Positions 23,847-27,481 of a stretch of DNA of 64,000 nt are shown piece by piece. The translations under genes were made by a program, and so were the position numbers. The stretch covers positions 1 through 64,000 of the forward strand of contig WSUB01000182.1 in NCBI GenBank assembly GCA_019633425.1. The letters run 5' to 3'. Every line of letters begins with the position of its first letter. Position 1 is the first letter of the stretch. The DNA is from Tulasnella sp. 424. Its lineage: Eukaryota > Basidiomycota > Agaricomycetes > Cantharellales > Tulasnellaceae. Under the pieces are notes generated by a model, which had not been told where the DNA came from, made no database searches, and was given only the letters and a program-made list of their open reading frames with translations.

Positions 23847-24111
23847 ATGTCACGCTCACAGCAAGCAGGTAGCGCTGAAGGACTCGATAGCAGGGAGACA
23901 GTATTTACTGAAATTGTACGACCCAAAGGGTATGTGGCTCACACTCTTTTGTATAAAGTCGGGGTGCAGAATGACATCTGACGGTGTATATAGGCTTGTG
24001 ATGACGGACAAGACGCGAGGGATTCAGGCTGCGCCTACTCTCCTCGTTCCACCACCAAAACCAAAGCCTAAGCATCCAGAAAACTCATCCCCGACGACAG
24101 CTATGGATTGA
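23847..24111 (+). CDS. Small protein, 66 residues, unknown function
   Basis: Two exons, 23847-23929 and 23994-24111, join in frame across a 64-nt intron (gtatgt...atatag). The product has 66 residues starting MSRSQQAGSAEGLDSRE. The N-terminal half is polar and acidic. The C-terminal half is basic and proline-rich (LLVPPPKPKPKHPENSS). There is no signal peptide, cysteine motif or membrane segment. A tatatat box lies about 145 bp upstream and an acag directly precedes the ATG, so a 5'-UTR intron is possible. The gene immediately precedes the tandem peptide array and shares its small two-exon layout and strand, but I see no clear sequence homology to those peptides. Confidence 0.5.
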
Positions 24112-24390
24112 TGAATCGAGAATGTTTCGTTTGTTTTCGAGCCTTGGTGACTGTATTAGGAAGTTTTGCATGTACGAGTTGGTAAATTATTCGCGTAGCA
24201 CCATGTGGAGTTTCTTACGAACGCGACCTCGTGATGGAGTGTGATGATTTCCCGGTCATAGAAGCTTAAGGATTGTGGAATGTTTTGGGATAGGGGATCT
24301 ATCGCTTTTCTTCCCCGGGCGCTACTTGTGATTGCACAGATGACGAGCGCGTGCCGATAAGATCGCACCGTAAATCTTGTGACCCTTCAG

Positions 24391-24404
24391 AAATATATAT
24401 ATTT
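24391..24404 (+). promoter_or_regulatory. TATA-like box conserved in all array units
   Basis: An aaatatatatattt run is followed by ttgattggctggcgctgataactg and the pyrimidine tract. Equivalent TA runs occur at about 25019-25030, 25636-25645 and 26278-26294, at similar distance (about 150-185 bp) from each peptide ATG. Conservation of the box, the downstream CT-rich tract and the ccaat motif in four copies suggests a core promoter. This is inferred from position and repeat conservation only. Confidence 0.5.
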
Positions 24405-24556
24405 GATTGGCTGGCGCTGATAACTGCCCTCTGCCCTCTCCTTTCCAATCTTTCTCTACAGAACCAAGGTAGGCAATGTCTTTTGCCAGCGCACTCATTG
24501 TCGTGGGCTGACAGATGCTTTCTAGGCCAAAGTCCAGACCATCTAGTGCAGCTACA

Positions 24557-24727
24557 ATGTCTAATCCGTCCACGTACCTGAATACACCGTGAGTCGCATG
24601 CCACGCACCGCTTCTTTATGTGGCCGGTGGCGCTCAGTGCCGGTTTATTAGAGTTAACTACGTCGACCCGACGGGTGGAGAACCAAAGGATTCGGTCGTC
24701 AAAGTCGACCAGGGCAAACCGAAGTGA
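24557..24727 (+). CDS. Tandem micropeptide gene, copy 1 (35 residues)
   Basis: Exons 24557-24588 and 24652-24727 flank a 63-nt intron (gtgagtcgc...ttattag) and total 108 nt, giving 35 residues plus stop. The peptide starts MSNPSTYLNTPVNYVDP, continues TGGEPKDSVVKV and ends DQGKPK. It is polar, has no cysteine and no signal peptide or membrane helix, so it is probably cytosolic or released by an unconventional route. The start is fixed by conservation in all four copies. I do not recognise the family. Confidence 0.65.
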
Positions 24728-25187
24728 GGAAGTCCCAACGCGGAACCTTGGGGCGTGGAGTCCTGAGTTTGTGTGCATGGGGATGATATTCTGTCCGTTT
24801 CCAATGAAGATTATTGTCTTGCTCTTTCCGCGAGTATGCGCTGTATCGAGGACTTGAGAAGATATCGTCGATCCCTGAAAAAAGAGGGGTTGGCGACGGA
24901 ATTGGGCCGCCTGTTCACCTTGAGCGGTGTGGGCTCTGCGTGTTCCCTGGGCGCTACCCTTGATTGCACAGAAGCTCGTGCTGATAAGACCGCACCGTCA
25001 ATCTTGTGACCCATCGGGAGTATATATACTTGATTGGCTAGCGCTGATAACTGCCCTCTTCCCTCCCCCTTCCAATCCTTCTCTGCAGAACATAGGTAGG
25101 CGTCGACGCCTTTTCCTAGCGCACTCATTGTCCTGGTCTCACCGACGCTTTCTAGACCAAAGTCCAGACCATTTGGTGCACCTAAAA

Positions 25188-25352
25188 ATGTCAAACCCAT
25201 CCACGTACCTGAATACGCCGTGAGTCGCATGCTACGCACCGTTTCTTCATGTGGCCGGTGGCGCTCAGTGCTGGTTCATTAGAGTTAACTACGTCGACCC
25301 GACGGGTGGAGAACCAAAGGATCCGGTCATCAAGGTCGAAAAACCGAAGTGA
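25188..25352 (+). CDS. Tandem micropeptide gene, copy 2 (33 residues)
   Basis: Exons 25188-25219 and 25283-25352 total 102 nt. The first 24 residues are identical to copy 1 (MSNPSTYLNTP and NYVDPTGGEPKD). The tail is shorter (PVIKVEKPK) because of a 6-nt in-frame deletion relative to copy 1. The intron keeps the same position, phase 2, and nearly the same sequence. This is the closest relative of copy 1 and probably the product of a recent unit duplication. Confidence 0.65.
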
Positions 25353-25802
25353 GGAAGTCCCAACGTGGAACCTTGGGGCGTGGAGTCCTGAGTTTGTGTG
25401 CATGAGGATGATATTCTGTCCGTTTCCAATGAAGATTGTTTTCTTTCTCTTTCCGCGAGAGTACGCTGTATCGAGGACTTGGGAAGATCTCGTCCATCCC
25501 TTAAAGAAGAGTTGGGCCACCTGTTCACCGTGAGCGGTGTGGGCTCTGCGTCTTCTTCTCTTCCCTGGGCGATTGCACAGAAGACGAGCTCGTGCCGATA
25601 AGACCGCACCGTCAATCTTGTGACCCATCAGGAGTCTATATATATGATAGGCTGGCGCTGATCACTGCCCTCTGCCCTCTCCCTTCCAAATCCTTCTCTG
25701 CAGAACATAGGTAGGCGATGTCTTTTGCCAGCGCACTCATTGTCCTGGTCTGAGGGGCGCTTCTTAGGCCAAAGTCTAGCCAAACCATCTTGTACACCTA
25801 AA

Positions 25803-25985
25803 ATGTCTAATCCATCCACGTACCTCAATGCACCGTGAGTCGCATGCTACGCACCGCTTCCCAATATGACCGATGGCACTCAATGGTGGTTCATTAGAGT
25901 TAACTACGTCGACCCGACTGGTGGGGAGCCAAAGGGCTCGGTTGCCGAAGTCAAGCAACAACAGGGCAATGCGAACTCGGCGTGA
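25803..25985 (+). CDS. Tandem micropeptide gene, copy 3 (39 residues)
   Basis: Exons 25803-25834 and 25898-25985 total 120 nt. The conserved head MSNPSTYLNAP-NYVDPTGGEPK is kept, with Thr10 changed to Ala. The tail (GSVAEVKQQQGNANSA) differs in both sequence and length, and the length difference is again a multiple of three. A TGA ends the frame. The same donor cc|gtgagtcg and acceptor ttag|agttaac are used. Confidence 0.65.
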
Positions 25986-26462
25986 CGAATGACAATGTCC
26001 CGACCCGGAACCTCGGCGCGTGGGGTCCTGAATTTGTTTGTATCTGTCCGTTTCCAATAAAGAATATATTTTTCTCTTTCCGCGAGAGTACGCTGTATCG
26101 AGGACTTGGAACGGTCTCGTCCATCCCCGAAAAAAGAGGGGTTGGCGACGGAATTGGGCCACCTGTTCACCGGTGGGGGCTCTGCGTCCTCTTCTCGTCC
26201 CCGGCGCTACCCTTGATTGCACAGAAGACGAGCTCGTGCTGATAAGACCGCACCGTCAATCTTGTGACCCACCAGGAGTATATATATATATATTTGATTG
26301 GCTGACGCTGATAACTGCCCTCTGCCCTCTCCCTTCCAATTCTTCTTTGCCGAACGAAGCTTCGAAGGTAGGCGACGTCTTTTCCTAGCGCCACGCACTC
26401 ATTGTATAGTGGTCTCACCGATGCTTTCTGGGTCAAAGTCCAGACCATTTGGTGCACCTGAA

Positions 26463-26666
26463 ATGTCTAACTCTTCTATGTACCTGAATGCGCCGTGAGT
26501 CGCGCGATAGGCACCGCTTAGTAGTTATATGGACATGACGGTGGCGCTCAAATGCGGTTTTGTTAGCGTTAACTACGTGGAGCCGACGAGTGCGGAGCCA
26601 AAGGATCCGGTCGCCCAAGTCCCAAAGGACCAAGGCCAGCAACAGGGCAATGTGAAATCGAAGTGA
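26463..26666 (+). CDS. Tandem micropeptide gene, copy 4 (43 residues)
   Basis: Exons 26463-26494 and 26567-26666 total 132 nt. This is the most diverged copy: it begins MSNSSMYLNAP, then NYVEPTSAEPKDPVAQV, with a longer Gln-rich tail ending GQQQGNVKSK. The intron has grown to 72 nt and the acceptor is ttag|cgttaac, yet the frame stays open and the substitutions are mostly conservative. Survival of the frame in the oldest copy argues that the peptide is selected for. Confidence 0.6.
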
Positions 26667-27165
26667 GGAGTGACCGCGTTCCTCGATCTAACGCGGAACC
26701 TCGCCGCGTGTACATAGCCCTGCGTTCGAGTGCACGCTATGATAATCTGTTCCGTTCCCAGCAATGTATTTTCTTTTTGCTGTCACAAAAGTACGCGATG
26801 TCAAGGGTTTGGAAAGGTTTCCCCCCACCCCTAAATTTGTACAAAGGTTGGTGTAGACGGCCATCTGTTCACTAGGGCCTCCCCAGCTGAGGCCTGCCTA
26901 AAGAGGATATATCGCGTGCCTGAGGCCGTTATAGGCAAATTGGTCACTCGAAGTCTTCTCGCGGTGAATTCCATTCGACGGTGGAATATTGAGAATTAGA
27001 GGGAATTATGACATTTCGGGGTATAACTATACTAGACAGAATAAGAGAAAATAGTTCAAGGTACGAGGGGTTGAACCGGCGGGAGGAGATGGGATAAAGA
27101 TATAAACGTCGACCTCAGGGAAGAGCGAGGTGAGAGTGGGTTTGATACGCCCAAGGCCGACAGTA

Positions 27166-27481
27166 TTAATATCTTGTTGTTCCTCTTGAACGGGAGCGAC
27201 GACGACTGCCACAGCGGCAGCAAATGATGTCGAGGAAGAAGTTCCAAATGGCGACGAGGACCTGTGCAGGCCAGTTTCAATCAGCGTCAAAATTGAGAAA
27301 TCCGGCGAAAAATGCAAGGCACGTACGGAAGTGATACCGCTGACTATGGCCATGAACACTCTGGCGATTGCAGAGATGACGGAGTTGATAGCGCGTCCGA
27401 TTGCTGAGAATATTGAACCCTGTATCGAGACCTGTGAGTACATTATTTCTGTGGTTGTGCGGGTAGTGGTAGGCTTACCAT
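27166..27481 (-). CDS. Small CC-motif membrane protein (67 residues), member 1
   Basis: Exons are 27479-27481 (only the ATG), 27327-27431 and 27166-27261, 204 nt together. The product begins MVSIQGSIFSAIG and has one long hydrophobic stretch of small residues (NSVISAIARVFMAIVSGIT), an aromatic segment (VLVAIWNFFLDII), then CCRC and a basic tail (GSRRRSRSRGTTRY). This suggests a hairpin or single-span membrane peptide whose cysteines could be lipid-modified. Paralogues lie at 48182-48510 and 51127-51467 with identical intron positions. The function is unknown. Confidence 0.75.

What the first reader, a model, noticed from the sequence alone, without database searches (positions are those of the whole stretch)
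24331..26875. Four-unit tandem array of two-exon micropeptide genes, each with its own promoter
Seen: four direct repeats of about 0.61-0.645 kb each hold a TA-rich box, a conserved CT tract, an ATG, an intron at the same phase-2 position, and a short frame. Spliced coding lengths are 108, 102, 120 and 132 nt, all multiples of three. The head (MSNPSTYLN, NYVDPTGGEPK) is conserved while the tail varies by in-frame indels. Unit 4 is clearly older yet still open. Inference: this is an expanding family of 33-43 residue peptides with a fixed head and variable tail, too short and too spliced for gene finders to call. Possible roles include signalling or a stress peptide; nothing in the sequence chooses.
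Basis: partly seen in the sequence, partly recalled or inferred. Interest (0 to 1): 0.9.

Follow-up and report, generated by a model that had tools for sequence, protein, structure and literature searches.

The report
Four tandem spliced micropeptide genes, fungus
A mushroom-relative fungus carries four side-by-side copies of a tiny spliced gene whose 33-43 amino-acid product keeps a fixed front half and a changeable tail; it looks like a real gene family of unknown role.

Summary
Four direct repeats lie at about 24331-26880, each with a TATA stretch, CT tract, ATG, a conserved GT..AG intron and a short frame giving 35, 33, 39 and 43 residues. They are very probably genes: in the spliced frame, and in no other open frame of the spliced head, changes are mostly silent (7 of 20000 column shuffles do as well; head dN/dS 0-0.20 in 6 of 6 pairs). 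CDS gaps are multiples of three in 4 of 4, against 6 of 24 outside. New: a second, 5'UTR intron (acceptor lost in copy 4); only copy 4's gene half is old, its promoter is young, which fits unequal crossing-over of a gene-to-next-promoter block; searches found only these four copies in the genome. No relative was found, while a neighbouring 67-residue spliced micropeptide found kin in four Cantharellales genera. No related fungal genome could be searched. No signal-like stretch, no Cys. Function is inference: a disordered intracellular peptide, its dose raised by duplication.

The parts
24331..24392 (+). unit 1 conserved promoter upstream of TATA (carries a GATA-type site at 24355)
   Evidence: 3-13% divergent between copies
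24394..24468 (+). unit 1 TATA stretch, CT tract and 5'UTR exon
   Evidence: transcription start not determined
24469..24525 (+). unit 1 predicted 5'UTR intron (GTAGGC...TCTAG)
   Evidence: splicing inferred
24557..24588 (+). unit 1 CDS exon A (MSNPSTYLNTP, last codon split)
24589..24651 (+). unit 1 CDS intron, phase 2, 63 nt
   Evidence: splicing inferred
24652..24727 (+). unit 1 CDS exon B with stop; whole peptide 35 aa
24803..24808 (+). unit 1 AATGAA, possible polyadenylation signal
   Evidence: inference
24973..25095 (+). unit 2 promoter, TATA, CT tract, 5'UTR exon
25096..25155 (+). unit 2 predicted 5'UTR intron
25188..25219 (+). unit 2 CDS exon A
25220..25282 (+). unit 2 CDS intron, 63 nt
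25283..25352 (+). unit 2 CDS exon B with stop; whole peptide 33 aa
25575..25710 (+). unit 3 promoter, TATA, CT tract, 5'UTR exon
25711..25767 (+). unit 3 predicted 5'UTR intron
25803..25834 (+). unit 3 CDS exon A
25835..25897 (+). unit 3 CDS intron, 63 nt
25898..25985 (+). unit 3 CDS exon B with stop; whole peptide 39 aa
26219..26367 (+). unit 4 promoter, TATA, CT tract, 5'UTR exon (young half of the unit)
26368..26431 (+). unit 4 counterpart of the 5'UTR intron; donor kept, aligned acceptor reads CTGG
26463..26494 (+). unit 4 CDS exon A
26495..26566 (+). unit 4 CDS intron, 72 nt
26567..26666 (+). unit 4 CDS exon B with stop; whole peptide 43 aa

Best explanation
This is a four-copy tandem family of real, very small protein-coding genes. 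SHOWN from sequence: a conserved promoter, a phase-2 intron with invariant GTGAGT/TTAG, one reading frame with mostly silent change in its first 23 codons, and a tail that changes by in-frame indels. INFERRED from divergence: the array grew by unequal crossing-over of a block running from one gene body into the next promoter, so the first promoter and the last gene body are the old ends. INFERRED about function (about 0.3 on its own): each copy makes a soluble, mostly disordered peptide without a classical secretion signal. The constrained head (MSN.S.YLN.PVNYV.PT..EPK) acts as a short binding motif for a partner in the cell, the K/Q/P-rich tail as a loosely constrained linker, and the copies raise dose under one shared, possibly GATA-factor-driven, promoter type. 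The confidence below is for the gene and array part with its mode of expansion, not for the function.
For: Unit anatomy in 4 of 4 copies. Head dN/dS 0, 0.05, 0.16, 0.03, 0.20, 0.13 for the six pairs; variable columns at codon positions 1/2/3 are 3/2/12 in 22 codons. Column shuffles of the spliced head: 7 of 20000 at or below the observed 19 residue differences, mean 38.0. Of six frames of the spliced head only the proposed one is both open and conserved, z -3.6. CDS gaps 4 of 4 multiples of three, others 6 of 24. Donor GTGAGTCG and acceptor TTAG unchanged in 4 of 4, with a CTCA branch-like word at the same place, 15-16 nt from the intron end, in 4 of 4, although intron 2 of unit 4 differs by 29-30% from the others. 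No ATG in the spliced leader of units 1-3 and a purine at -3 in 4 of 4. Most distant unit is 1 in the promoter (bootstrap 0.96), but 4 in CDS plus intron (0.92) and in the 3' part (1.00); units 3 and 4 differ at 7 of 111 promoter/TATA/CT sites and at 75 of 225 intron and 3' sites. Searches with units 1 and 4 as protein, a promoter query and the unit 2 gene as DNA report only these four places in 46.8 Mb. Hydropathy lies on the disordered side of the Uversky line in 4 of 4, by 0.013-0.025.
Against: No RNA, Ribo-seq or peptide evidence could be consulted. Only four sequences of one genome, related by descent and perhaps conversion, so shuffle and pairwise tests are not independent. The exon-B frame alone is not significant (z -1.4, 106 of 1000). 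Among the 54 frame tests (9 stretches, 6 frames each) some others are also low: one antisense frame of the spliced head (z -2.4, 4 stops), one of exon B (z -2.3, 4 stops) and one of intron 2 (z -2.3, no stops). Over the whole CDS dN/dS is 0.18-0.49 and the unit 1-unit 4 pair is not significant (P 0.27), so the tail is weakly constrained or misaligned. The two segments between promoter and CDS give no clear outlier unit (bootstrap at most 0.59), and promoter closeness of units 2-4 could be selection or gene conversion instead. Genome search counts are lower bounds by the tool's own statement. GATA-type sites are common (2.70 per kb of window, both strands). Nothing direct supports any function.
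Confidence: 0.72

Rival explanations
1. Real peptides, but exported: a leaderless signal or effector-like molecule toward a partner, or a RiPP-like precursor in which the fixed head is the leader and the variable tail the core.
For: Fixed head with variable tail, small size, exon A ending within a Pro codon, tandem copies; size overlaps cyclic-peptide precursors of 33-37 residues (passages of PMC5159998).
Against: No hydrophobic signal-like stretch and no Cys in 4 of 4; tails are K/Q/G/N/P-rich, with no conserved C-terminal follower. No tailoring-enzyme family among the Pfam matches (E 0.01) in the frame scans of + 14-34 kb and - 22-32 and 34-44 kb; other stretches were not scanned that way. 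Prolyl oligopeptidase (PF02897) gave three matches, on two other contigs. UstYa found nothing, in a search whose controls were silent too, so it proves nothing.
Confidence: 0.12
2. Non-coding: the repeats are short spliced RNA genes or regulatory repeats, and the frame is incidental or a decaying remnant.
For: Introns and promoters are conserved too; the product is tiny and no relative was found.
Against: Codon-specific silent changes; frame-keeping indels; no Rfam match in the window at gathering scores; 2 of 81 predicted RNA pairs show a two-sided change that keeps the pair, covariation term +0.31.
Confidence: 0.1
3. A longer or different protein: further exons, the antisense frames, or an N-terminal extension through a retained 5'UTR intron.
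For: Long antisense open frames overlap the array (232, 154, 156 and 159 aa), and one antisense frame of intron 2 is open and conserved at z -2.3. Units 1 and 4 have an upstream ATG in frame inside the UTR intron; in unit 4 that intron lacks its TAG.
Against: The antisense open frames start at irregular distances, out of register with the units; the low antisense values are 3 among 27 antisense tests and two of the three hold stops. Pfam finds nothing in the 232-aa frame at E 0.001 (the other three were not submitted). Upstream ATGs are in frame in 2 of 4 units, out of frame in unit 3 and absent in unit 2, and the leader just before the ATG has 1- and 4-nt indels.
Confidence: 0.06

Closest known systems
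Neighbouring SIFSAIGRAINSV...CCRCGSRRR micropeptide family (27166-27481, minus strand)
   Same: Also a tiny spliced gene in the same locus; relatives are named 'putative transmembrane protein' or 'hypothetical protein' in Cantharellales.
   Different: 67 aa, hydrophobic middle, Cys- and Arg-rich end, found in several genera; no sequence resemblance seen.
MSDIN cyclic-peptide precursor genes of Amanita, Galerina, Lepiota
   Same: 33-37 aa precursors, multigene family, one short intron inside the CDS, leader ending in Pro (passages of PMC5159998).
   Different: Here no conserved C-terminal follower, the intron lies within codon 11 rather than the fourth-last codon, the variable part is the tail, and the prolyl oligopeptidase matches are on other contigs.
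Basidiomycete mating pheromone precursors (recalled)
   Same: Short precursor genes in small clusters.
   Different: No C-terminal CaaX and no Cys at all in 4 of 4.
Small secreted proteins / effectors of symbiotic and pathogenic fungi (recalled)
   Same: Small, lineage-restricted, tandem.
   Different: No signal-peptide-like hydrophobic stretch in 4 of 4.
Small ORF-encoded peptides (micropeptides) in general (recalled)
   Same: Under 100 aa, no relative found, coding signal from codon constraint.
   Different: Own promoter, intron and tandem array rather than a frame in a longer RNA.

Membership tests
Protein-coding micropeptide gene family | reading frame under purifying selection | tested here: met
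   head dN/dS 0-0.20; 7 of 20000 shuffles; tail weakly constrained
Protein-coding micropeptide gene family | transcribed, spliced and translated | not testable with these tools
   no RNA-seq, Ribo-seq or peptide data available
MSDIN cyclic-peptide precursors | 10-aa leader, 6-10 aa variable core, conserved 17-aa follower | tested here: not met
   residues 1-23 conserved, C-terminal tail variable; definition from passages seen
MSDIN cyclic-peptide precursors | intron interrupting the fourth-last codon | tested here: not met
   intron within codon 11 of 33-43
MSDIN cyclic-peptide precursors | dedicated prolyl oligopeptidase B | tested here: inconclusive
   three matches, on contigs C149 and C101, none on C93; A or B type not determined
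Basidiomycete pheromone precursors | C-terminal CaaX prenylation motif (recalled) | tested here: not met
   no Cys in 4 of 4
Classically secreted small proteins | N-terminal hydrophobic signal stretch | tested here: not met
   best 15-residue mean hydropathy -0.35, -0.35, -0.18, 0.05; no signal-peptide program was run
Structured RNA gene | known family match or compensatory changes | tested here: not met
   0 Rfam matches; 2 of 81 pairs; only four sequences, so the test is weak
Any Pfam family or solved structure | profile or sequence match | tested here: not met
   none at E 10 for units 1, 3, 4 (unit 2 not submitted); 0 PDB chains at E 10 for the profile of the four

The most novel reading that the evidence does not exclude
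A lineage-born family of spliced micropeptides in Cantharellales in which a 23-residue binding head is held fixed while its tail is free to change, expanding by unequal crossing-over in a register that gives every new gene a fresh copy of one shared promoter, so that dose and co-regulation are kept while tails diverge.
Probability: 0.3. Interest if true: 0.6.

Novelty: new member of a known kind. Interest (0 to 1): 0.42.

Why it matters
Fungal gene sets usually omit spliced proteins below about 50 residues (recalled), so families like this stay invisible. Tandem copies give an internal comparison that reveals coding constraint without any related genome, a method that could be run over many fungal assemblies. 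If translated, the array offers a natural experiment on how a very short protein keeps one half fixed and lets the other drift.

Tried and rejected
Structured RNA: Rfam and consensus folding gave no support. Antisense genes: long antisense frames exist but are out of register with the units and give no consistent codon constraint. RiPP or MSDIN-like precursor: size and head/tail layout suggested it, the defining features fail. Dispersed mobile element: searches report only these four copies in the genome. Extra exon past the TGA (GTGAGG could look like a donor): by eye, no TAG or CAG in the next ~130 nt of unit 1, and unit 3 reads GTGACG, so not pursued. Bacterial promoter/terminator scan: not informative for a fungus. 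tRNA and short-period tandem-repeat scans: no tRNA in the window, and none of 5 short-period rows lies in the array. Literature: nine searches, seen as listings of titles and abstract starts, only part of the papers found (20 of 132, 10 of 58, 8 of 9); none of the listed ones appears to describe this family. The exact 11-residue string is in 0 papers. Structure prediction was not run: its stated rule admits proteins read letter for letter from the DNA, which a spliced peptide is not.

Full report
WHAT IS THERE. Four direct repeats lie head to tail at about 24331-26880. A four-way alignment shows the same order in each: a conserved upstream stretch, a TATA run, a CT tract, a GTAGG...TAG stretch that looks like a 5'UTR intron (TAG lost in unit 4), an ATG, a 32-nt exon A, an intron with GTGAGTCG...TTAG, an exon B ending in TGA, and a 3' part with AATGAA or AATAAA in units 1-3. 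Spliced products are 35, 33, 39 and 43 residues. Nineteen columns of the peptide alignment are invariant, 17 of them within residues 1-23.

IS IT MORE THAN CHANCE. The repeats themselves are beyond doubt. That they code for protein rests on the substitution pattern. In the 22 head codons after the ATG, variable columns fall 3, 2 and 12 at codon positions 1, 2 and 3; dN/dS for the six pairs is 0, 0.05, 0.16, 0.03, 0.20 and 0.13. Shuffling alignment columns gives as few residue differences in 7 of 20000 trials. Of the six frames of the spliced head only the proposed one is both conserved (z -3.6) and free of stops; one antisense frame reaches z -2.4 but holds 4 stops. Exon A alone gives z -2.6 and exon B alone z -1.4 in its frame, so the signal is strongest with the two exons joined. 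All 4 CDS gaps are multiples of three against 6 of 24 outside; some CDS gaps overlap and may be fewer events.

Results on the other side: with tails included dN/dS is 0.18-0.49 and the unit 1-unit 4 pair is not significant. One search made 54 frame tests, and an antisense frame of intron 2 without stops reaches z -2.3. The copies are related and may have exchanged sequence, so the tests are not independent. No expression data were available.

HOW THE ARRAY GREW. Divergence is uneven along the unit. In the promoter, unit 1 is the outlier (bootstrap 0.96) and units 2-4 differ by 3-4%. In CDS plus intron and in the 3' part, unit 4 is the outlier (0.92 and 1.00); the two segments between give no clear outlier. 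Units 3 and 4 differ at 7 of 111 promoter-side sites but at 75 of 225 intron and 3' sites (Fisher 7e-9). This is what unequal crossing-over leaves if the duplicated block runs from a gene body through its 3' flank into the next promoter: the first promoter and the last gene body are the undisturbed ends. Selection on the promoter or gene conversion could give part of the same pattern.

UNIT 4. Its leader intron keeps the donor, but the acceptor aligned with TAG reads CTGG. If that intron is retained there, an upstream ATG at 26421 is in frame with the main ATG and could give a longer product; another acceptor may be used instead. This is untested. In one search the leader donor of unit 1 was set one base early and that of unit 2 two bases late; by the sequence this does not change the finding of no ATG in the spliced leaders.

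RELATIVES. Queries with unit 1, unit 4, a mixed promoter query and the unit 2 gene report only the four copies in the 46.8-Mb genome; the tool calls such counts lower bounds. A search of 5.8 billion proteins with the four peptides found no candidate sharing three 5-residue words, among proteins of similar length. Viral contigs (40 pattern matches, none confirmed) and prokaryote genomes (13, none confirmed) gave nothing, as expected for a fungal gene. As a control, the 67-residue spliced micropeptide about 0.3 kb downstream found 6 relatives in Tulasnella, Rhizoctonia, Ceratobasidium and Clavulina, so the database does hold some small spliced proteins of this order; the control is longer and so offers more words, and frames as short as the array's may simply not be annotated. 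No related fungal genome could be searched, so 'no relative found' is not 'no orthologue'.

HOST AND SETTING. The neighbour's relatives place the host in or near Cantharellales, possibly Tulasnella (best hit; lineage). A TPR protein at 33-35 kb has a 79% relative of unnamed source and a 31% one in Suillus. Around the array: PIP5K at about 21.6-22.0 kb (+), Yae1 at about 23.1-23.2 kb (-), TAF11-like at about 30.9-31.2 kb (-) and TPR at 33-35 kb (-). The Pfam frame scans covered + 14-34 kb and - 22-32 and 34-44 kb only.

HOW IT MIGHT WORK. The peptides are hydrophilic (GRAVY -0.82 to -1.00), just on the disordered side of the Uversky line in 4 of 4, without Cys and without a signal-like stretch. 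I therefore favour a soluble intracellular peptide whose fixed head binds one partner and whose tail is a tolerant linker, with duplication raising the dose under a shared promoter. The upstream GATA-type site is present in 4 of 4 promoters and a second one in 3 of 4, but such sites are common and this is a lead only. This functional reading is inference, about 0.3.

COMPARISON. MSDIN precursors share size, a multigene habit, one small CDS intron and a Pro-ending leader, but their intron place and conserved follower were tested and are not met (definitions from passages of PMC5159998). Pheromone precursors fail for want of a C-terminal Cys motif (recalled definition). Other papers were seen as search listings only.

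VERDICT. A real tandem family of spliced micropeptide genes, probably unannotated, ordinary in kind and of unknown role.

Noticed in passing
27166-27481, minus strand: A spliced 67-residue hydrophobic micropeptide gene (SIFSAIGRAINSV...CCRCGSRRR) with relatives in four Cantharellales genera; the own genome shows further matches on the same contig near 51.2 and 64.2 kb, and weaker ones with stops near 48.2 kb, on the minus strand too, so it may form its own local family.
   Followed up: partly
23847-24111, plus strand: Just upstream of the array, a predicted two-exon 66-residue gene; residues 12-36, across the splice junction, match an open stretch on contig C323 at 68% identity, E 2.6e-4 (L005), so it may be a duplicated piece of another gene.
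   Followed up: partly
26368-26431: Unit 4 lost the TAG acceptor of the 5'UTR intron; an upstream ATG at 26421 is in frame with the main start.
   Followed up: partly
24515 (unit 1): Unit 1 also has an in-frame upstream ATG inside the predicted 5'UTR intron; retention could give a longer N-terminus.
   Followed up: no
24299-26255, minus strand: Four long antisense open frames (232, 154, 156, 159 aa) overlap the array but are out of register with its units.
   Followed up: partly
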